Assembly: GCA_022792335.1 (NCBI GenBank)
Contig: JAAWAV010000021.1
Span: 27,275 to 91,274 of the forward strand
DNA length: 64,000 bases
Direction of reading: 5' to 3'
From: Lachnospiraceae bacterium
GTDB lineage: Bacteria; Bacillota; Clostridia; Lachnospirales; Lachnospiraceae
Shown: positions 4,046 to 13,276 of the stretch, piece after piece
Layout: every line of letters begins with the position of its first letter
How positions within the stretch are numbered: position 1 is the first letter of the stretch
The notes under the pieces: generated by a model
The model's database searches: none
What the model was told of the DNA's origin: nothing
Seen by the model: only the letters and a program-made list of their open reading frames with translations
Made by a program: the position numbers and the translations under genes

Positions 4046-5332
4046 ATTTCAATCCACGCTCCCGCCAAGGGAGCGACTCTGAAATTCTAATGGCGTATAT
4101 AAGTTTACAAATTTCAATCCACGCTCCCGCGGAGGGAGCGACATTTTATACGATGAATCAAGTGCGATGTTGCACAATTTCAATCCACGCTCCCGCGAAG
4201 GGAGCGACGAACCTTTTCAGTGATGAATGTAATAAGGTTCCAATTTCAATCCACGCTCCCGCGAAGGGAGCGACATGGATTTACCGACTACGAGTCGGAT
4301 AGCATTGAGATTTCACTCCACGCTCCCGCGAAGGGAGCGACGGTGGCAATTGGTCTTAGATAACAGTATAAGCAAATTTCAATCCACGCTCCCGCGACGG
4401 GAGCGACGTCAATCGACTTTTCAAATGCTTGCACCCATTACGATTTCAATCCACGCTCCCGCGAAGGGAGCGACAGGGTTCGTTTTGAGTGAGGATAAGA
4501 ACATGCAGATTTCAATCCACGCTCCCGCGAAGGGAGCGACCGGTGGAAACTGTGGATGTAACGGTTGCTAGTGATTTCAATCCACGCTCCCGCGAAGGGA
4601 GCGACCGTCTCGGATTGACTGGAACCGTGGTGAGGCCAATTTCAATCCACGCTCCCGCGAAGGGAGCGACGAGAAAATGCTGCCATTATTACAGTAGTAA
4701 AGATTTCAATCCACGCTCCCGCGAAGGGAGCGACAAAGTTTGTTCAATTTGTTCGTTTTTTTATGGTAATTTCAATCCACGCTCCCGCGAAGGGAGCGAC
4801 TATTTGAGGGTGTCAAAATTTGTATGGTCTACTGATTTCAATCCACGCTCCCGCGAAGGGAGCGACGACAAACAGCCGGGGTACTTCATGGAGCAGTCTC
4901 AATTTCAATCCACGCTCTCGCGAAGGGAGCGACGCAGAAAAAGCGTGAAATGCAGCGGAAAGCAGAGATTTCAATCCACGCTCCCGCGAAGGGAGCGACC
5001 GCGAAGCTGCTTGTAAGATACCTGTCCGATGTAATTTCAATCCACGCTCCCGCGAAGGGAGCGACGTTGCAGTGCCGCCGACATGTGATAGACCCACGCA
5101 ATTTCAATCCACGCTCCCGCGAAGGGAGCGACGCAGGTGGTACACTGATTGCGTATATTATCGGAATTTCAATCCACTCTCCAGCGAAGGGAGCGACAAT
5201 GTGGTCAAGGACAAAACGCTGGTTGCCGGTAGATTTCAATCCACGCTCCCGCGAAGGGAGCGACTAGGCAGCCTTGTTGGGTCTGTTCTTGGCGTAATCG
5301 ATTTCAATCCACGCTCCCGCGAAGGGAGCGAC
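4046..5332 (-). CRISPR. Type I-C CRISPR array, 20 repeats and 19 spacers
   Basis: Twenty 32-bp repeats start at 4046, 4111, 4177, 4243, 4310, 4376, 4443, 4509, 4574, 4639, 4703, 4769, 4835, 4902, 4968, 5034, 5101, 5166, 5233 and 5301; spacers are 32-36 bp. On the minus (transcribed) strand the repeat is GTC, a 6-bp stem GCTCCC/GGGAGC with loop TTCGC, then GTGGATTGAAAT, the classic I-C form. Orientation follows from cas2 and the A+T-rich leader at the 5332 side, so spacer 5265-5300 is the newest. Variant repeats: 4046, 4111, 4310, 4376 and 4902 with one change each, as expected mostly at the old end, and 5166 with two changes although only third from the leader. Confidence 0.98.
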
Positions 5333-5511: not shown

Positions 5512-5802
5512 CTACAGAAACAAAGGAGCTTTCATATCCACGCTTTCTTTCACGCCTATATGCTCGACTTTATTTTTATAATTATTTCCAAGGTAATAAA
5601 AGCGCAGGCTGTCTGTCCTGGTGTCAATGATTTCCTCCAAGATCGCTTTTACCTCCCTGCATTTGGCCGCATCCATCTCACATTCAAAGACGGAGTTTTG
5701 GACTCTCGTACCATAATTGACGCATTGCTTTGCCACCTGCCGCAGCCGCTTTTTCCCTGCTGCTGTTTCTGTATTGACGTCATAAGTGATCAATACCAAC
5801 AT
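5512..5802 (-). CDS. cas2: CRISPR-associated endoribonuclease/integration subunit Cas2
   Basis: A 96-residue protein, the usual Cas2 length, beginning MLVLITYDVNT with the conserved Asp8 of the ferredoxin-like fold and containing RVQNSVFECE, the typical second-strand motif. With Cas1 it forms the spacer integration complex. The start at 5802 is chosen because it begins the Cas2 fold and leaves 8 bp after the cas1 stop; a longer in-frame extension would run back into cas1. It is the last gene of the cas operon, followed directly by the leader. Confidence 0.97.
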   Translation of the reverse strand: MLVLITYDVNTETAAGKKRLRQVAKQCVNYGTRVQNSVFECEMDAAKCREVKAILEEIIDTRTDSLRFYYLGNNYKNKVEHIGVKESVDMKAPLFL

Positions 5803-5810
5803 CCCGTCAC

Positions 5811-6842
5811 CTACTTCCACATGAACGGCGGATAAGCATCCAGGTCGCCCCGGATATAACGCGCCAGGAGCAGCGCCTGTGCATAAGCCGCCATTCCCCA
5901 TTCCATTTTTACTTCCAGAAACGGATGTTTGATGCTTTCCTGCTTTCTTGCCTGCCAGGCCGATAATACCGCTTTCCTCGTGTCGTCATCCATAATGACC
6001 GCTCCATTCTCCTTCCTAAAAAATCCAGAAGGCGAAACAATTCTCTTGTTAATCAAAGAAAGCACAAAGCGGTCTGCGTATACTGGACGCAGTTCTTCCA
6101 TAAGATCCAACGCCAGAGAAGCTCTTCCTGGGCGGTCCGTATGCAGAAAACCCACATACGGATCAAGACCCACAGTTTCCAGTGCAGCCGCAGTCATATG
6201 GGCCAACAGAGTATAAGTAAATGAAAGCAGCGCATTGACCTCGTCCAGCGGAGGCCGTCGGTTCCTTCCCCTGAAGGAAAACGTTTCTTTTTGCTGAAGA
6301 ATCAGTTCGTCGAACACGGAAAAATACAGACTCGCCGCCTCCCCCTCGATCCCCCGAAGAGTTTCCATAGAATCACAGATCTGTACGGCTTTCAACGCAT
6401 TTTTTAATCTGCCGGAGACCAGTTTCAGCCGCTCCACGTCCACCCGCATAGCATGGTCTCTCGTCGCCCGCTCCAGCACCCATCTTCCATTAAACAGCTT
6501 TCCGCTAATGAAGCTTTTTGCGATATCCAGACTGCTCTCTGTATCCTCCGACAGAAAATACTGCCTTTTGCGAAGCAGAACGTTTCCCCGGCTCTCGCCG
6601 GAAACTCTTGCAAGAAAGCGGCCGGACCGGGAAAGAAACGAAAGCGCCACGTTCCGCTTTGCACAGGCTCCCATCAGGGCCGGACTGGCGCCGGCAAAGC
6701 CAAGGGTCACAATGGCCTCCAGGTTATGGAGCGGTATCCTTCCCACTTCTTCACCCTCTGACAGGACGACCACATTTTCTCCGTCCAGCGACAGATATCG
6801 GTCAGGAGAAGTCACATATAATGTATTCAGAAGTCTCTTCAA
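5811..6842 (-). CDS. cas1: CRISPR-associated integrase Cas1, type I-C
   Basis: The 343-residue protein has the full Cas1 architecture: N-terminal beta domain (1-90), then the helical catalytic domain with Glu166 (RGIEGEAA), His234 (GFLHTDRPGR) and Asp246 (SLALDLMEE) as likely metal ligands. The N-terminal sequence MKRLLNTLYVTSPDRYLSLDG is typical of I-C Cas1. It integrates prespacers at the leader end of the array. The ATG overlaps the end of cas4 by 4 nt, indicating translational coupling within the operon. Confidence 0.98.
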   Translation of the reverse strand: MKRLLNTLYVTSPDRYLSLDGENVVVLSEGEEVGRIPLHNLEAIVTLGFAGASPALMGACAKRNVALSFLSRSGRFLARVSGESRGNVLLRKRQYFLSEDTESSLDIAKSFISGKLFNGRWVLERATRDHAMRVDVERLKLVSGRLKNALKAVQICDSMETLRGIEGEAASLYFSVFDELILQQKETFSFRGRNRRPPLDEVNALLSFTYTLLAHMTAAALETVGLDPYVGFLHTDRPGRASLALDLMEELRPVYADRFVLSLINKRIVSPSGFFRKENGAVIMDDDTRKAVLSAWQARKQESIKHPFLEVKMEWGMAAYAQALLLARYIRGDLDAYPPFMWK

Positions 6843-7525
6843 TCTTCATCCTCCTTCACCCGTCTGGAAATATATTCTTTTGCCGATCTCTTTTTCATTA
6901 ACTGGGGCAGGCAAAGATCTTTCAGCGAACAGGCATTGCAGGCTTTCGTTCTCTTTACCATCGGCGTATGCTTCCGCTCATAATACTGATGCATCTCCCG
7001 AAAGGCATCTTTAACCCGCCTCCGGATCTCTTCGCCCAGTGGCACCTCGATCCGCCGCCTGATCTCCCCGTAGAATAGATATCCTTTCCTGATCTCACAT
7101 CCGAGCATTTCCTCCAGGCACATGGCCTGGGCCGCCATCTGGAGGATGTCCGTTTCCTCCTCCTTTGGCTGACCTTTCTTATATTCTACCGGATATACCA
7201 GATATCTGCCCTCCCGTCCCCGCAAAGGAATCCCGTCTCCATCTGTCCGGTGAAATTCAACGATGTCGCAGACACCGTTTGTACCAAGGGTTCTGGAAAA
7301 CACGGGCATCCCCCTGGAAATCAGGATATCTCCCCTTTTTTCCGTGGAATAACCGTCGTGGGCTTTTTTATGGAACAGCTTTCCCTCCACAGTTCTCAGA
7401 TTCTCTTCCCACTGCTGTTCCAAATGGATCAATGCCCACTGCCTTCTGCAGAATAAAAAATGTTGGATGCCGGAGAGCATCAAATAATCCTCTTCCTCAT
7501 ATCCATTCAGTTCTTCCGAATACAT
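6839..7525 (-). CDS. cas4: CRISPR-associated Fe-S exonuclease Cas4
   Basis: This 228-residue protein has the RecB-like nuclease core with Asp87, Glu114 and Lys116 (PVEYKKG) and Gln129, plus four cysteines for a [4Fe-4S] cluster: Cys26 (FCRRQW) and Cys196, Cys199, Cys205 near the C-terminus. In type I-C, Cas4 works with Cas1-Cas2 to trim prespacers and enforce the PAM. The start at 7525 has GGAAGGAG just upstream and overlaps the cas7 end by 19 nt, so it is coupled to cas7. Confidence 0.97.
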   Translation of the reverse strand: MYSEELNGYEEEDYLMLSGIQHFLFCRRQWALIHLEQQWEENLRTVEGKLFHKKAHDGYSTEKRGDILISRGMPVFSRTLGTNGVCDIVEFHRTDGDGIPLRGREGRYLVYPVEYKKGQPKEEETDILQMAAQAMCLEEMLGCEIRKGYLFYGEIRRRIEVPLGEEIRRRVKDAFREMHQYYERKHTPMVKRTKACNACSLKDLCLPQLMKKRSAKEYISRRVKEDED

Positions 7526-8397
7526 GTCACTCCTTCCGGAATCTGTTCTTCACAGACGGTCACTTCATAATCTCCATAGCATCGGGGCTGCATTTCGGCT
7601 TTCCTCTTTTTCACCTTCACGGCGTCAAACAATTTATGGGCCGGCGCATCGCCAAGCTCTGAATGATGTTTGAAAATGATCAGCTCCCGGACTGCCATTT
7701 TTCCTCTGGCCGCCGAACGGTCATGTTCAAACATATTTAAAATCGCTTCCCACAAAAGCTCCGTATCCGCTTCACTGAATCCTGTCACCTTCCTTGCCAG
7801 ATTGGCAGACACAAATCCCTCCGCCCGATACAATCCGTAGGGGACGATCTCCTTTCTTCCCATCTCCGTTTTCTTTTTCTCCGCATCCTTTTCCGTAGTA
7901 ATGGCAACTCTCGTTATGGTCAGGCTCTGTGGCACGATGGGATCCACTGACCGGGCAAAACCAAACTGTACCGGCCCCCTCACCTGCCCGCAGTTTAAAT
8001 TGGCTTTGACGAAGGTGGTCATGACTGCCCCAAAGGCTCGGATATCGAAAAATCGGGAGCACATAAAGTCCCGGATCCTCCGGTCCAGCTCCGGGTCGTC
8101 CTTTTTTAACGCCGGGATCTTTTTTTCATCGATGGATAATTCTGCAAAAGCCCCGGCATCCTTGACGTTTAAAGGCGTTCCTTCTTTAATATAAATCTGA
8201 TATCCCGGATCTTCTTCCTTCACAGTCTCCACATAGTTGCGGATCTTCCGTTTCAGACAGACGTCGGTTACGATCCCATGCCCCGTATCCAGGTCCACTC
8301 TGGGCGCATTTCCATTGTCCGGGTCTCCATTGGGATTTCCGTTTTCCACGTCGAACAATACCACAAAATCATATCTGTTTCTGATTGCTTCTCCCAT
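7507..8397 (-). CDS. cas7: Cascade backbone subunit Cas7 (Csd2), type I-C
   Basis: A 296-residue Cas7/Csd2 protein with the family-defining N-terminus YDFVVLFDVENGNPNGDPD and a central FGAVMTTF...GPVQFGFARSVDP segment. Several copies coat the crRNA spacer in the Cascade complex and impose the 6-nt kinking of the guide, which is relevant to the crRNA-like RNA at 13164-13276. GAGGAGG lies just upstream of the ATG, and the gene follows cas8c by 2 nt. Confidence 0.97.
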   Translation of the reverse strand: MGEAIRNRYDFVVLFDVENGNPNGDPDNGNAPRVDLDTGHGIVTDVCLKRKIRNYVETVKEEDPGYQIYIKEGTPLNVKDAGAFAELSIDEKKIPALKKDDPELDRRIRDFMCSRFFDIRAFGAVMTTFVKANLNCGQVRGPVQFGFARSVDPIVPQSLTITRVAITTEKDAEKKKTEMGRKEIVPYGLYRAEGFVSANLARKVTGFSEADTELLWEAILNMFEHDRSAARGKMAVRELIIFKHHSELGDAPAHKLFDAVKVKKRKAEMQPRCYGDYEVTVCEEQIPEGVTCIRKN

Positions 8398-8399
8398 AG

Positions 8400-10133
8400 T
8401 TAAGCCTCCTCTTTCTTTTCGTATCTTGTCTGTGTCTGGTGATAATATCCGAGCATAAATACTGCCTGTTCCTCCGGGCCGAACTGCCTGGGAACCGGAG
8501 CCTCCAGCCGGCCGATAATTTCTACGATTTGCATTTCCAGTTTGTCCGCCAGTTCCGGTCTATCCCGTTTCAGCTTTTTCATATGGCTTTCTTTTAACTT
8601 CAAAAGTGGCGCGAATGCTAAAACTGGCGTACAGCACATACTGTTTAAATAGCGATCTTTAATTGTCGTGTTTAAAGGATCTTTCTGGGAATCCTTTCCT
8701 TTTGCCGCCGTCACCTGCACATTCTCCAGCAGAGAAAACAGCCGTCCCAAAAGATACGCCTGATGATTCGTCTCCATGTTCAGTCCCACGCTACATCCCT
8801 CCTTATTTTTATCACTCATGCTGTTTTTCCATAAATATGCTTTCAACATAGCCGCCCGCTTCCAGTTTAGATCATGGTCTGCCCGGATTCTCCGCAAAGT
8901 ACAAAAAAGCAGTTCCTCCGGATATCTGGAATCCATAAGGACCGACTGGAAAAAGGCCGTCGTCAAGGTCGGAAGCTTGTCCTTCCCTCCTGGAGCCTTC
9001 ATTTCATCCAGTATCACCCAAACAGGCAGGTAAGGCTTTTTTACAAACGCCGGAAGAACGATCTCCAGCCGTTTCTCGTGGGCCCGGATATTGGCCAGCC
9101 ATCTCCCAAACTGGTCTTTCAAAAAGAAGCGTACTGAAAGTCGGGCCGCATTGGGAGAAAGGCCCAGGATATAAAACAGATGATCCGGCCGAAGCTCCTG
9201 ATCTTTCCACTCCACCTTTTCGCCCCGGCACAGCTTTTTAAGCGCTGCCTGGACATCCGCGTCCCGGATAGAATCCTCCTGATTTAAATATGCCATCAAA
9301 ATATCCTGATGAACCGTATTTCCCTCGAAGGCCCAGCCAACCACCGTCACATCCCCCGCCCTAAAAACCCGTTGTGAATCCGACAAAAGATAATTGAGAG
9401 CTGCGCCATAGGCTCTGGCCGCACTTTCTCCAGTCTGTGCGTTTCCTCCATTCTCCATCTCATAAGAACAAAACGCCTCCGCATTGAAAGATACCAGCGA
9501 CGCTCCGCTGGACTGGGCCCCCCATACCCCCTTGATTAAGGGATGGAGCCTTGCGATCGGCTCCCGCTTTCCGGTCACCAGGCAGATTCCCGATTCTCCA
9601 TCCTTCTCCCGGTTCCTGTACTGTTCCCAGGCCTCCCGGATTTCAGGATTTTCCGCCACCGGCTTCCCTTCATAATAAAAGACCAGATTTGCACCTTTTT
9701 GAAGCTCCTCCATTTCTGGCTTCAGTACTTCATGTTCCGAGATACATTTGGGATTCCAACTGCCAAAAAAATTTTTCACTGCCTCCGCCGCTTCCGTATG
9801 CACCTCTTCCAAAAGCTCCAGGTGTTTTTTTTGTGACGCGGCAAACCGTTCCATCGCCTTCTCTGGCTTTCCTCCGCCGTCCGTTCCCAGAAGGTATCCG
9901 GCGTTGTCCCAGAGGAAAAATGCCAGCACCCCGCTTGTCCTTGTCTGGTGCTCTGGTACTCTCATCTTCCGAGGCTTTCCATTCTCGTCCTTCAGAGAAA
10001 GAAGCTGTCGGATCTCTCCGTCTTTCCCAAGCAGGATTCCGTAAGACACCTTTTCATCCATCCAGCCAGGGGCGCCGATCTTCCCCTGCTTCACAAGTTT
10101 TTCATATAGTCTTGTAAGTTCATAAAAGATCAC
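8400..10133 (-). CDS. cas8c: Cascade large subunit Cas8c (Csd1), type I-C
   Basis: The 577-residue size, MIFYELTRLYEKLV start and the GKREPIARLHPLIKGVWGAQSSGASLVSFN block are characteristic of Csd1/Cas8c. It recognises the PAM (TTC in characterised I-C systems) and recruits Cas3; in other I-C systems an internal start also yields a small Cas11-like subunit, which could apply here but was not mapped. The GTG start at 10133 overlaps the cas5 stop as GTGA. Confidence 0.96.
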   Translation of the reverse strand: MIFYELTRLYEKLVKQGKIGAPGWMDEKVSYGILLGKDGEIRQLLSLKDENGKPRKMRVPEHQTRTSGVLAFFLWDNAGYLLGTDGGGKPEKAMERFAASQKKHLELLEEVHTEAAEAVKNFFGSWNPKCISEHEVLKPEMEELQKGANLVFYYEGKPVAENPEIREAWEQYRNREKDGESGICLVTGKREPIARLHPLIKGVWGAQSSGASLVSFNAEAFCSYEMENGGNAQTGESAARAYGAALNYLLSDSQRVFRAGDVTVVGWAFEGNTVHQDILMAYLNQEDSIRDADVQAALKKLCRGEKVEWKDQELRPDHLFYILGLSPNAARLSVRFFLKDQFGRWLANIRAHEKRLEIVLPAFVKKPYLPVWVILDEMKAPGGKDKLPTLTTAFFQSVLMDSRYPEELLFCTLRRIRADHDLNWKRAAMLKAYLWKNSMSDKNKEGCSVGLNMETNHQAYLLGRLFSLLENVQVTAAKGKDSQKDPLNTTIKDRYLNSMCCTPVLAFAPLLKLKESHMKKLKRDRPELADKLEMQIVEIIGRLEAPVPRQFGPEEQAVFMLGYYHQTQTRYEKKEEA

Positions 10134-10810
10134 CGGAGCACCTCGCTTTCCGAAAGGTCCAAAACTCCGTCCGAAAGTATCGCCCGGAAAAATGTCGGAC
10201 TAGCGTCATAAACCACGGTTCCGTCTTTCAGTTTGCGGGAACTGTATTCCATGTGGTGGAGCATGAGTCCCAGATCTTTCTCCCGTCCTTTGTATTCCGA
10301 ATCCGGAACCTCTCCCTCCAACAGTCTAAAGTGGGCTGGAAACTCCCGGACTCCGAAATAAGGTTGATGGTAGCATTGCCCCTTCCGCGCCCGCCGCTTC
10401 AAGATATCCTGGAATTTCCCCGAATTATCCGTGTCATTGGCTTCCGGGCCAATGTCAAAATGTGCTTCGATTACGTAGCGGACGTTTTTTAACACAGTAG
10501 ACGCCCGCTGTACGATATCCGTTTTCGTATTCAGATAAAGCCCTCCGAACGCTTCTTTCTTGATGATGGTTTTCACTCCGGAGCATCCGATCTTGGACTT
10601 CACCTCGTTTCTCCGCACTCCCGCAAACTGTATGGCATTTAACACATGGATTCGGTCGATCTGATAATGCAGGCCCGGATGCCAGAATATGGCCTCCAGA
10701 ATCCCGACTGCCGCTCCCGGTGTCATAACGTCGTAGCTATACCGCTCCGTCTTAAGCTCCGGCCTGGTAAAGCATGCGTAATCTCCCCATACCTCCAGTT
10801 TTATGGACAT
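10130..10810 (-). CDS. cas5c: Cas5c (Cas5d), crRNA-processing Cascade subunit
   Basis: A 226-residue Cas5 of the I-C branch: MSIKLEVWGDYACFTRPELKTER, then TPGAAVGILEAIFWHP, the G-rich turn typical of Cas5. Type I-C lacks Cas6, and Cas5c itself cleaves pre-crRNA at the 3' base of the repeat stem, leaving an 11-nt 5' handle. The same cut would release a guide from the pseudo-repeat RNA at 13164. The ribosome site AAAGGAGG is well placed before the ATG. Confidence 0.96.
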   Translation of the reverse strand: MSIKLEVWGDYACFTRPELKTERYSYDVMTPGAAVGILEAIFWHPGLHYQIDRIHVLNAIQFAGVRRNEVKSKIGCSGVKTIIKKEAFGGLYLNTKTDIVQRASTVLKNVRYVIEAHFDIGPEANDTDNSGKFQDILKRRARKGQCYHQPYFGVREFPAHFRLLEGEVPDSEYKGREKDLGLMLHHMEYSSRKLKDGTVVYDASPTFFRAILSDGVLDLSESEVLR

Positions 10811-10827: not shown

Positions 10828-12960
10828 TTACACAAAAATTGCAGCGCCTTCCTCCTCCGAAAAGGTAAGGCCGGCACGTTTATCATACAGTTTCTCATTT
10901 ATTAAAACTGCCGTTCCCTGAATCAGCTCTATATCTCCCAACCGCAAGAGTTCCCGGTAATGAGGTTCGTAGACATTCACGCTGTATCTCCCCAATTTTC
11001 GGAAAAGCCCCCCGCCTGTCTGCCCGCCCCGAAGCTTTCGGACCAGTTCTTTTCCCTCTTCCTTCCAGGGAATATAAACCGTATCCGTATCCTCATTGAT
11101 CAGCCGGAAGGTTTTCGCAATCTCCCGGAACGCATACTGCTCCACCTTCTCCATGATCTTTTTTCGATCCAGGTTTTCCTTCCCCCGAAGCTCCCTCCAG
11201 AAGCGGAAATAGGCTTCAATCGCCTCCAGGCTGTCCCATTCCTTATACTCCTCCATAATACAGCGAGCCACCTTCACCTGCTGACTGATGGAATCCGGAA
11301 GCCTGCCGCCCTCCAGGGAGAACACCTCCACGATGCTTTCCTCCGGTTTCCCCATTCCGTTCCGGTTACACCGGCCCGCCGCCTGCAAGATCGAGTCCAG
11401 CCCGGCCTGTTCCCTGAGCACATACTGGAAGTCCAGATCCACGCCCGCTTCCACCAGGGAGGTGGCGATCACAAGGCAGGGAAGGTTTTCTTCAAGCCGC
11501 CTTTTAATCTCAGAAAGTACTTCTTCCCTGTGAGCCGGGACCATCATCGTTGTCAGATGAAAACACTCTTCCCGTCTTTCCAACAGTTCATACAGCCTCC
11601 TTGCTGTCCGCTTCGTATTGACAATGCAGAGCGCCTGTCTGTGGGACTTCAGTTTTTCCGCAATTTTTTCCAGTGGCAACGCCCCTCCATTCACGAACGT
11701 GACCCGTTTCAGCCGTTCAAACTGCTTTTTCGTGTCTTTCGTAATCTCCTCCGGCTCTGTCCCCTTTGGAAATGTAATTGCCGGCTGAGTCGCCGTGCAA
11801 AGAACCTGAGTTGCCCGAAAAAGAGCAGATAGTTCCTCCATGGCATGGATACAGGGTGTCCAGTAAGCGACCGGAAGCATCTGTACCTCGTCATAAATGA
11901 TCACGCTGTTCGCGATATTATGGAGTTTTCTGCACCTGGAAGATTTATTGTGAAACAGAGATTCAAAGAACTGAACTGCCGTCGTTACAACAATCGGCAT
12001 GTCCCAGTTTTCACTGGCCAGTTGGAACGGACTCCACTCCTCCTCAGAACCTGCTTCATAAATCACATTGGAATGATGCTCCAACACATTTTCTTCCCCC
12101 AGAATCTCCCGGAATTTCTTTGCCGTCTGCTCAATGATATTCATATAAGGGATCACATAGATCACTCTGTCCAGTCCCTGAGATACCCCGTGGCGTAACG
12201 CCCAGTATAGGCTGCTCACAGTTTTTCCGCCTCCCGTGGGCACTGTCAGTGTGTAAATTCCCCGCTTCGCTTCCTGCCCATGAGCCGCCACAGTCTGGAG
12301 AAGCTCCGAACGCATTCCGTTTATGCCTGTTTTCCCCATCAGCCAGCCCTGTTCTTTCAACCAGGCTTCCAGCCTCCCCAGCAGTGTTTCCAGACATTCG
12401 CCCGTTCCCCTTGACGCTGGTTTTCCATTCATAAATTCTTCTGTATTTAAAAAATCAGCGTCCACCAGAGACGAATACAAAAATTTCGTCTCCATGTATC
12501 TATCAAAAGTCGTCTGAGAAGGATCCATTTCCGGTACATCATGGATATGTAGAAAAGGACAGAGCTCCTCCCATCCGCTGTAGTCCGGAATTTTCCCGGA
12601 CTGTCCTTTTTTTAAACGTCCCCGGACTGTTCCGTCGTCGGTATCCATCTGCCCGCCAAAATCCAACAAGCCGCTGTGATGTCCCATTATACACATAGCC
12701 GCCGTCATCTGTCTCCTTTTAAACGCCTCCAGGGCTCCGGCTGTGGAATGATCACATCTTTCTGTGGACTTCGGATTCCGAAGCCTGGCCTGAAATTCCT
12801 CGCTGCATTTCCCAAGATCATGGAAACCTCCCGTCAGTTCTCCCAAAGGCTGCTTTCCGAATGCGGCTGCAAATTCCCCCGCTAACTTCGCCGTCTCCTG
12901 CAGATGCTCCAAAACAGTCTGTTCTCTGTCCTCTGCTTTGTGTGCCAGATAAGTTTTCAT
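10828..12960 (-). CDS. cas3: Cas3 helicase-nuclease, type I-C
   Basis: This 710-residue protein carries an N-terminal HD nuclease (His47-Asp48 in GGFHDLGK, His71, His94-His95) and a superfamily 2 helicase with Walker A TVPTGGGKT (about 239-247), DEVQ box at 357-360 and the SLVEAGVDLDF/QAAGRCNRNG motifs VI region. It is recruited to the Cascade R-loop to unwind and degrade target DNA. It is the first gene of the cas operon; AAGGAG precedes the ATG. Its promoter (13021-13049) overlaps a PAM-flanked match to the divergent crRNA-like RNA. Confidence 0.98.
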   Translation of the reverse strand: MKTYLAHKAEDREQTVLEHLQETAKLAGEFAAAFGKQPLGELTGGFHDLGKCSEEFQARLRNPKSTERCDHSTAGALEAFKRRQMTAAMCIMGHHSGLLDFGGQMDTDDGTVRGRLKKGQSGKIPDYSGWEELCPFLHIHDVPEMDPSQTTFDRYMETKFLYSSLVDADFLNTEEFMNGKPASRGTGECLETLLGRLEAWLKEQGWLMGKTGINGMRSELLQTVAAHGQEAKRGIYTLTVPTGGGKTVSSLYWALRHGVSQGLDRVIYVIPYMNIIEQTAKKFREILGEENVLEHHSNVIYEAGSEEEWSPFQLASENWDMPIVVTTAVQFFESLFHNKSSRCRKLHNIANSVIIYDEVQMLPVAYWTPCIHAMEELSALFRATQVLCTATQPAITFPKGTEPEEITKDTKKQFERLKRVTFVNGGALPLEKIAEKLKSHRQALCIVNTKRTARRLYELLERREECFHLTTMMVPAHREEVLSEIKRRLEENLPCLVIATSLVEAGVDLDFQYVLREQAGLDSILQAAGRCNRNGMGKPEESIVEVFSLEGGRLPDSISQQVKVARCIMEEYKEWDSLEAIEAYFRFWRELRGKENLDRKKIMEKVEQYAFREIAKTFRLINEDTDTVYIPWKEEGKELVRKLRGGQTGGGLFRKLGRYSVNVYEPHYRELLRLGDIELIQGTAVLINEKLYDKRAGLTFSEEEGAAIFV

Positions 12961-12973
12961 ACCATTTTTCTCC

Positions 12974-13015
12974 TTTTTCCACGGTCCAGGCGTGTGCTCT
13001 TGTCAATCGACGGTA
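12974..13015. repeat. Half copy of the dispersed inverted-repeat element (copy 2)
   Basis: The 42-bp segment ends in CTTGTCAATCGACGGTA (12999-13015), 16 of 17 identical to the right end of copy 1, and its inner part (CTTTTTCCACGG, then GCGTGTGCT) also matches copy 1. No left half is present. It sits between the cas3 ribosome site and the predicted cas3 transcription start, so it forms most of the cas operon 5' leader. Confidence 0.7.
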
Positions 13016-13020
13016 GCTGA

Positions 13021-13049
13021 ATGATAACATTTTTACATTTAAATTTCAA
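13021..13049 (-). promoter_or_regulatory. Predicted promoter of the cas operon
   Basis: Read on the minus strand: -35 TTGAAA (13044-13049), 17-nt spacer, -10 TATCAT (13021-13026), predicting a start near 13014, about 54 nt before the cas3 ATG. Upstream sequence is A+T-rich and includes a perfect dyad AGATAT-C-ATATCT (13067-13079) that could be a regulator site. Confidence 0.75.
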
Positions 13050-13060
13050 TTAACTTATAA
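13045..13060 (+). promoter_or_regulatory. Candidate Cascade target inside the cas3 promoter (PAM plus seed)
   Basis: TTC (13045-13047), the I-C PAM, is followed by AATTAACTTATAA (13048-13060). The guide part of the RNA at 13208-13220 reads AATTATCTTATTA: 11 of 13 positions identical, with mismatches only at 6 and 12, the nucleotides flipped out in type I R-loops. Similarity ends after position 13. The PAM lies within the complement of the -35 hexamer. Confidence 0.8.
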
Positions 13061-13128
13061 TATATAAGATATCATATCTGGAAATAAAAGGCAAGCAGAA
13101 TTTGTCGAAATAAATATTTTTTTTAACT

Positions 13129-13157
13129 TTGCTTCTCTCTTCTTTCTGTGTTATGAT
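13129..13157 (+). promoter_or_regulatory. Predicted promoter of the crRNA-like RNA
   Basis: -35 TTGCTT (13129-13134), 17-nt spacer, extended -10 TGTTATGAT (hexamer TATGAT at 13152-13157). The predicted start is about 13164, exactly the G that begins the pseudo-repeat. The -35 is weak but the extended -10 compensates. Confidence 0.65.
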
Positions 13158-13163
13158 AGCTTT

Positions 13164-13276
13164 GTCGTGGAAAAAATATCAGATCCATTTTCCATGTGGA
13201 TTGAAATAATTATCTTATTAAGCGAGTGCTTTCCAGCCATGCATCTTTCATGCCGGACCGGACGCACTCTTTTTTT
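13164..13276 (+). ncRNA. CreR-like crRNA-like RNA, predicted autorepressor guide for the cas operon
   Basis: Seen directly: GTC, a stem-loop (TGGAAAA 13168-13174 with TTTTCCA 13188-13194, extendable by one G-U pair), then GTGGATTGAAAT (13196-13207). The first 3 and last 12 nt equal the ends of the CRISPR repeat while the stem is different, so this is a pseudo-repeat that should still be bound and cut by Cas5c. The following guide starts at 13208 and matches the cas3 promoter next to a TTC PAM except at positions 6 and 12. No second repeat follows; instead a terminator (13224-13276) closes the transcript. Established knowledge: Cas-regulating RNAs (CreR, and related scaRNA or tracr-L guides) redirect Cas effectors with short, partially matching guides to repress cas promoters. 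Inferred: the same role here, in type I-C. Expression is not shown. Confidence 0.8.
13224..13276 (+). terminator. Intrinsic terminator of the crRNA-like RNA
   Basis: Arms GAGTGC (13224-13229) and GCACTC (13264-13269) enclose a loop with smaller CATG and TCC/GGA pairings, followed by seven T (13270-13276). It faces the minus-strand terminator of the next gene, so the RNA is an isolated transcription unit. Confidence 0.8.

What the first reader, a model, noticed from the sequence alone, without database searches (positions are those of the whole stretch)
13045..13060. PAM-flanked partial guide match inside the cas3 -35, with mismatches only at positions 6 and 12
The guide at 13208 reads AATTATCTTATTA; the cas3 promoter has AATTAACTTATAA at 13048, directly after TTC. 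Eleven of 13 positions match, and the two mismatches are at 6 and 12, the bases known to be flipped out of type I R-loops. Beyond 13 the match stops, as expected for a guide that permits Cascade binding but not Cas3 cleavage. The PAM lies in the -35 hexamer (TTGAAA on the minus strand), so binding should block transcription. This predicts self-regulation: free Cascade represses cas3, and loss of Cascade to crRNAs or anti-CRISPRs relieves it.
Basis: partly seen in the sequence, partly recalled or inferred. Interest (0 to 1): 0.95.

Follow-up and report, generated by a model that had tools for sequence, protein, structure and literature searches.

The report
Guide RNA brakes its CRISPR operon
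Next to a type I-C CRISPR-Cas operon sits a predicted small gene shaped like a CRISPR guide RNA, and the first 13 bases of its guide match the operon's predicted promoter except at the two positions that a related Cascade is known not to read; it likely turns the immune machinery into a brake on itself, and 35 guide-target pairs with this match pattern, the window's included, lie in 192 I-C-like loci.

Summary
A standalone repeat handle and guide (13164-13276, +) lie divergent from cas3. Guide AATTATCTTATTA matches TTC+AATTAACTTATAA (13045-13060) except at positions 6 and 12, the only such site in the 2.67-Mb assembly (about 0.03 expected).

Relatives decide the meaning. In L016 and L048 all 3 guide changes at read positions 1-11 are mirrored in the target; changes at 12 do not keep pairing. 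L017 and L018 lack both handle and target.

In 198 Cas3 loci (192 distinct), 35 of 176 standalone handles have a local TTC-flanked partner matching at least 9 of 10 read positions among 1-11; 0 of 166 array spacers and 0 of 512 control-motif guides do. Positions 6 and 12 mismatch in 29 and 30 of 35; pairing is enriched through 17 and ends at 18.

Best reading: a CreR-like crRNA mimic by which I-C Cascade likely represses its own operon. CreR is described for I-B, I-E and V-A; here it is I-C, with one repeat and a predicted terminator. Transcription, loading and repression are inferred, and promoter overlap is seen only in the window. Shmakov 2023 could not be read.

The parts
13045..13047 (+). 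TTC PAM of the target (non-target strand), inside the -35-like hexamer of the minus-strand promoter
   Evidence: TTC gave 33 pairs in the survey, the next trinucleotide (TTT) 3
13048..13060 (+). target AATTAACTTATAA; matches the guide at 1-5, 7-11 and 13
   Evidence: compensatory changes in L016 and L048
13021..13049 (-). predicted cas-operon promoter TTGAAA-17-TATCAT
   Evidence: consensus scan, 10 of 12; not shown to be active
13149..13157 (+). predicted extended -10 (TGTTATGAT) of the RNA gene
   Evidence: sequence; TATGAT kept in L016 and L024 and scored in L016 as TTGCCT-17-TATGAT with TG; in the window the -35 is weak and not called by the scan
13164..13276 (+). predicted crRNA-like RNA (repeat-like hairpin, handle, guide, terminator); ends inferred
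13166..13196 (+). repeat-like hairpin, 9 predicted pairs, 13-nt loop, sequence unlike the array repeat's stem
   Evidence: minimum-energy fold; the centroid structure differs and the fold of the whole RNA is not exceptional (z -1.15)
13196..13207 (+). handle GTGGATTGAAAT, identical to the 3' end of the array repeat
13208..13223 (+). guide AATTATCTTATTAAGC (first 13 used)
13224..13276 (+). predicted intrinsic terminator: GAGTGC ... GCACTC, then seven T
   Evidence: stem ends and T run kept in L016 and L024, with the L024 interior diverged; the stricter scans (loop up to 8) did not list it
10828..12960 (-). cas3
   Evidence: TIGR01587 and TIGR01596 above cut-off
10130..10810 (-). cas5c (TIGR01876)
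8400..10133 (-). cas8c (TIGR01863)
7507..8397 (-). cas7 (TIGR02589)
6839..7525 (-). cas4 (TIGR00372)
5811..6842 (-). cas1 (TIGR03640, type I-C)
5512..5901 (-). cas2 (open frame; the model matches from residue 34 on)
4046..5332 (-). CRISPR array, 20 repeats of 32 nt (GTCGCTCCCTTCGCGGGAGCGTGGATTGAAAT in guide sense)
   Evidence: repeat boundaries set by eye

Best explanation
A predicted crRNA-like RNA gene divergent from cas3 carries a guide whose first 13 bases match, except at positions 6 and 12, a TTC-flanked site in the predicted promoter of the type I-C cas operon, and it likely loads into the cell's own Cascade to repress that operon without cutting it. Shown from sequence: the anatomy, the guide-target match, its uniqueness in the assembly, its compensatory conservation, its joint loss, and its recurrence in other I-C-like loci. 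Inferred: the RNA is transcribed, trimmed by Cas5c, bound by Cas5c-Cas8c-Cas7, and holds an R-loop too short to call Cas3 for cleavage while blocking RNA polymerase at the promoter or just beside it. Also inferred: the brake senses free Cascade, so abundant crRNAs or anti-CRISPRs that occupy Cascade would release it.
For: Match and uniqueness. Covariation: L016 guide AACTATCTTACCA and target AACTAACTTACTG both changed at 3 and 11; L048 both at 7; changes at 12 do not keep pairing. Joint loss: L017 and L018 have no ATTGAAA within 500 nt upstream of cas3 and no TTC site better than 7 of 11 for three guides of the clade. Survey: 35 of 176 standalone handles pass against 0 of 166 array spacers and 0 of 512 control-motif guides; TTC 33, next PAM 3. 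Positions 6 and 12 mismatch in 27 and 29 of 33, not different from permuted pairs (means 25.1 and 27.0), so they behave as unread. Of 33 targets, by my reading of the ORF lists 14 lie upstream of cas3 and 13 upstream of cas5c. Terminator-like signals follow 17 of 33 guides (3.8 in mononucleotide shuffles) and -10-like boxes precede 24 of 33 (10.8). In L022 the target ends 5 nt before a cas3-directed TTGACT-17-TATGAT. Precedents: a type I-C CRISPRi system with a TTC-flanked spacer over a -10 lowered expression (PMC10865793, passages); in type I-E, pairing of as few as 5 seed nt is often enough for Cascade binding while interference needs extensive pairing (PMC5904413, passages).
Against: No expression, binding or reporter data. 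In L016 and L024 the consensus scan finds no promoter-like site at the target (site numbers there are at shuffle level), so a promoter under the target is supported in the window only; in those two the R-loop would have to act as a roadblock or on a promoter that the scan misses. Only 32 of 198 loci (192 distinct) carry a pair by the rule, with none of 29 in the set (class of a Methanoculleus genome) or 18 in that, and 2 of 29 (tally): a common option, not a rule. L017 and L018 live without it. In the wider whole-locus test, shuffled guides did as well as the real one in 12 of 200 for L022 and 2 of 200 for L048. The L048 target changed at position 5 without the guide. The window's match ends at 13, shorter than many others. 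The overlapping + strand promoter-like site leaves open that the RNA controls a promoter of its own. The assembly is incomplete.
Confidence: 0.86

Rival explanations
1. The RNA is real and Cascade-guided, but the target is a + strand promoter (TTTACA-18-TATAAT, 13032-13061) that drives the RNA itself, so the loop regulates the guide and not mainly the cas genes.
For: scores this site 11 of 12, higher than the cas3 promoter; its -10 lies inside the target.
Against: In L016 and L024 the scan finds no promoter-like site at the target on the RNA's strand; in L016 the RNA has its own site TTGCCT-17-TATGAT next to the repeat. In the survey 27 of 33 targets lie upstream of cas3 or cas5c by my reading.
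Confidence: 0.07
2. A decayed end of a CRISPR array whose spacer happens to resemble the promoter.
For: The handle is identical to the array repeat's 3' end.
Against: The stem was replaced yet a hairpin remains predicted; guide and target co-vary; the match is confined to read positions; 0 of 166 array spacers show such a local partner.
Confidence: 0.03
3. Chance match in AT-rich intergenic DNA.
For: The region is AT-rich and the match is only 13 nt long.
Against: One site in 2.67 Mb, 16 of 100,000 shuffled guides, compensatory changes, and separation from controls.
Confidence: 0.01
4. A phage-derived anti-CRISPR decoy RNA (Racr) that occupies Cascade.
For: A solitary repeat; a type I-C Racr is known (PMC10651486, passages).
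Against: It lies beside the cas operon and carries a functional-looking guide and terminator; no match in phages, plasmids or an exact-pattern scan of viral contigs.
Confidence: 0.02

Closest known systems
CreR, cas-regulating RNAs of types I-B, I-E and V-A (described in PMC13131331, PMC12948488 and PMC12737573; passages read; primary paper not read)
   Same: crRNA-like RNA with partial complementarity to a cas promoter, using the effector for autorepression
   Different: type I-C (Cas5c processing expected instead of Cas6); one repeat and a predicted terminator, no second handle 15-90 nt downstream in 33 of 33; visible 5+1 match pattern
crRNA-like regulatory elements surveyed by Shmakov et al. 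2023 (NAR gkad495; not held; content recalled only)
   Same: standalone repeats or mini-arrays with partial matches to cas or cargo promoters, recalled as mostly type I
   Different: cannot be compared in detail; it may already list I-C elements, which would lower the novelty
CreTA and CrePA toxin-guarding modules (PMC12737573, section 10 read)
   Same: Cascade plus crRNA-like RNA represses a target gene
   Different: the window's target lies before the cas operon; four surveyed loci have a DUF3990 gene in the toxin's place, whereas the review gives KilA-N proteins as typical for CreP
Natural single-guide RNA (tracr-L) that autoregulates Cas9 systems (title seen in the reference list of PMC10651486; name and details recalled)
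   Same: a natural guide RNA represses cas expression
   Different: Cas9 single-guide form; unrelated RNA architecture

Membership tests
CreR | crRNA-like RNA gene in the cas neighbourhood | tested here: met
   handle, predicted hairpin, guide and predicted terminator beside cas3
CreR | PAM-flanked partial complementarity to a cas promoter | tested here: met
   for the window, where the promoter is itself a prediction; no promoter-like site at the target in L016 or L024
CreR | guide-target pairing maintained by selection | tested here: met
   3 of 3 guide changes at read positions 1-11 mirrored in the target; joint loss in two relatives; in L048 target position 5 changed without the guide
CreR | two-repeat mini-CRISPR form (mini-CRISPR from the passage; the two repeats are recalled) | tested here: not met
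   no GATTGAAA 15-90 nt downstream of the handle in 33 of 33; a very degenerate second repeat is not excluded. Hence filed as a variant that works like CreR
CreR | subtype I-B, I-E or V-A | tested here: not met
   type I-C by Cas5c, Cas8c, Cas7 and Cas1 models
CreR | effector-dependent autorepression, relieved by crRNAs or anti-CRISPRs | not testable with these tools
   needs an experiment
Racr (RNA anti-CRISPR) | solitary repeat carried by a mobile element | tested here: not met
   beside the cas operon; no match in phages, plasmids or viral contigs
CreTA / CrePA | guide directed at a toxin gene promoter | tested here: not met
   in the window the next gene downstream of the target is cas3; four other loci point at DUF3990 genes

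The most novel reading that the evidence does not exclude
Type I-C CRISPR systems in several bacterial phyla carry a compact, single-repeat, terminator-ended guide RNA that makes Cascade a transcription repressor of its own operon, or of a guarded cargo gene. Its targets record the reading frame of the R-loop in nature: three five-base blocks under selection, with sixth bases unread, even in the seed.
Probability: 0.75. Interest if true: 0.82.

Novelty: new variant of a known kind. Interest (0 to 1): 0.74.

Why it matters
It extends RNA-guided autorepression of CRISPR to type I-C, which the passages read here do not list for CreR, with a minimal one-repeat design that is easy to rebuild. The 33-35 natural pairs are evidence from evolution on which guide bases a Cascade reads. 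Position 6 matches in only 6 of 33, no more than in permuted pairs, whereas E. coli type I-E off-target sites match at position 6 more often than chance (45%, PMC5904413 passage). That makes a standing question on the seed directly testable. It also predicts that anti-CRISPRs which disable I-C Cascade would raise cas expression.

Tried and rejected
Chance, array debris and phage decoy were tested and rejected. The idea that mismatches at 6 and 12 are actively selected was tested: 56 of 66 against a permuted mean of 52.1 (10% of permutations reach it), so unread is enough and avoidance is not shown. Rfam found nothing in the window at gathering scores. A search of the I-C structure paper PMC11417383 for flipped or sixth bases found none of the terms. 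In some searches I assumed that loci from the genome search were turned to the match; they are not, so the first 1500 nt of minus-strand matches were mislabelled as upstream of cas3. scan both strands without that assumption and replace it.

Rows dropped before the count of 198: loci L001-L015 and L104-L114 (other searches), four Cas3 loci (L025, L032, L040, L045) and six duplicates (L047, L121, L123, L178, L190, L213). One search found six more duplicate pairs, none with a guide-target pair, so 192 loci are distinct; the handle counts (176, 166, 512) still contain them. Matches beyond the loci limit were not fetched: 30 of 37 were, 30 of 30 (two already held), 21 of 21, 30 of 63 (one already held), 21 of 21, 19 of 19, 30 of 32. 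Not every one of the 198 was checked for Cas5c; 10 of 10 chosen genomes have it. The handle pattern misses repeats with another 3' end, so 32 loci is a lower bound.

Full report
What is there. The window holds a type I-C system on the minus strand: cas3, cas5c, cas8c, cas7, cas4, cas1, cas2 and a 20-repeat array at 4046-5332. Only 17 nt separate cas3 from cas5c, so a promoter upstream of cas3 could drive the operon. On the plus strand, facing away from cas3, lies a compact predicted gene: an extended -10 (13149-13157), a sequence that starts GTCG like the array repeat, a hairpin of different sequence (13166-13196), the handle GTGGATTGAAAT identical to the repeat's 3' end (13196-13207), a guide from 13208, and a terminator-like GAGTGC...GCACTC-T7 ending at 13276. 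The terminator and hairpin are predictions: the stricter scan did not list the terminator, and the fold of the whole RNA is not exceptional (z -1.15).

The match. Guide AATTATCTTATTA and target AATTAACTTATAA (13048-13060, after TTC) differ at positions 6 and 12 only. The pattern TTCAATTANCTTATNA occurs once in the 2,665,725-base assembly, against 0 for the reversed control; a Markov model of the window expects 0.029. Among 3,163 TTC sites of the window, one has 11 of 11 read-position matches and the next best have 8.

Relatives. Two close relatives keep both parts. L024 has the same guide and target over 13 nt. L016 has guide AACTATCTTACCA and target AACTAACTTACTG: positions 3 and 11 changed on both sides and still pair, 6 stays mismatched, 12 changed on both sides without pairing, and 13 no longer pairs. 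The more distant L048 (Cas3 63% identical) changed position 7 on both sides; its target also changed at 5 without the guide. So 3 of 3 guide changes at read positions 1-11 are mirrored. L017 and L018 have no ATTGAAA within 500 nt upstream of cas3, and the guides of the window, L016 and L048 reach at best 6 and 7 of 11 at any TTC site there.

Promoters in relatives. L022, a distant locus with its own RNA, has its target 5 nt upstream of a cas3-directed TTGACT-17-TATGAT. In L016 the scan finds a cas3-directed site (TTGAAA-17-TAGTAT, 2185-2213) on the far side of the target (2231-2246) and the RNA's own TTGCCT-17-TATGAT; in L024 it finds nothing at the target. The number of sites in these three stretches is at shuffle level. 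The exact way in which transcription would be blocked is therefore open.

Survey. Cas3 of the window was used to collect 198 loci (192 distinct). In them 176 standalone handles were tested for a TTC-flanked partner within 600 nt. Selecting only on the ten read positions among 1-11 (at least 9), 35 pass; 0 of 166 array spacers and 0 of 512 control-motif guides pass. A rule that uses positions to 17 gives 33 pairs in 32 loci, all with distinct 17-nt guides; guides that share 13 or more of 17 fall into two groups (L016, L024, L048 with the window; L051, L053, L060). In the 35 pairs the mismatch counts by position are: 1-5: 1, 0, 2, 0, 1; 6: 29; 7-11: 1, 3, 2, 1, 2; 12: 30; 13-17: 7, 8, 7, 10, 12; 18: 24; 19: 30. 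The low values at 1-5 and 7-11 follow partly from the selection; those at 6, 12 and 13-19 do not. In the 33 pairs mismatch at 6 and 12 is not different from permuted pairs (23% and 21% of permutations reach it), so these bases look unread rather than avoided. By record title, nine pair-bearing loci belong to Lachnospiraceae (two), Pseudoflavonifractor, an uncultured clostridial bacterium, an uncultured actinobacterium, Parafannyhessea umbonata, a Desulfobulbaceae, a Cellvibrionaceae and an Armatimonadetes genome. By source: 9 of 26 loci, 9 of 29, 2 of 28, 8 of 19, 2 of 29, 2 of 20, 0 of 18, 0 of 29 (tally).

Where the guides point. By my reading of the ORF lists, of 33 targets 14 lie upstream of cas3, 13 upstream of cas5c, 4 upstream of a DUF3990 gene between cas3 and cas5c, 1 upstream of an HNH gene, and 1 (L117) is unclear, with a NUDIX gene on the other side. 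L077 has two such RNAs, one for each cas gene. No second repeat handle follows the guide in 33 of 33; terminator-like signals follow 17 (3.8 in mononucleotide shuffles) and -10-like boxes precede 24 (10.8).

Mechanism. Shown: anatomy, match, covariation, co-loss, recurrence. Established elsewhere: a type I-C CRISPRi system guided by a TTC-flanked spacer over a -10 lowers expression (PMC10865793, passages); in type I-E every sixth base is flipped out, short seed matches allow binding, and interference needs long pairing (PMC5904413 and PMC5965380, passages); in I-C, Cas5 does the crRNA processing (PMC5965380, passages); CreR represses cas genes in I-B, I-E and V-A and responds to crRNA competition and anti-CRISPRs (review passages). 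Inferred: the same loop works here.

Limits. There are no experiments. The promoter assignment rests on consensus in the window, where further promoter-like sites overlap the target, and is weaker in relatives. The most relevant earlier survey (Shmakov 2023) was not available. Full-text searches for CreR, mini-CRISPR, crRNA-like and type I-C terms listed no paper that I recognised as describing an I-C cas-regulating RNA, but most of the listed papers I judged by title and abstract start only.

Noticed in passing
L051, L053, L060, L061 (cas3-cas5c gap): A DUF3990 gene (PF13151; in L060 also a sub-threshold ADP-ribosyltransferase hit) sits between cas3 and cas5c and its upstream region is the target of the crRNA-like guide, as in CreTA/CrePA modules. 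A relative of this gene is present in 8 of 198 loci; no paper in the library holds both DUF3990 and CRISPR.
   Followed up: partly
L077 (1407 and 3794): Two separate crRNA-like RNAs in one I-C locus, one aimed upstream of cas5c and one upstream of cas3.
   Followed up: partly
window 12966-13015: The predicted cas3 5' leader contains one end of a dispersed element with ACCGTCG(A/C)TTGACAAG termini, 11 further matches in the assembly. Three of the seven other copies printed show the inverted end nearby (L003, L005, L006), so it looks like a miniature inverted-repeat element. Similar ends near 495 and 22622 in the window.
   Followed up: partly
L044 4799-5050: A small HNH-domain gene lies next to a crRNA-like guide and its target downstream of cas3.
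   Followed up: no
L117 4150-4845: A guide-target pair near a NUDIX-domain gene upstream of cas3; which gene is controlled is unclear.
   Followed up: no
L024, about 2285-2305: The handle-like motif is duplicated in tandem just before the guide (ATTGAAAT CCATGTGG ATTGAAAT), unlike its relatives.
   Followed up: no
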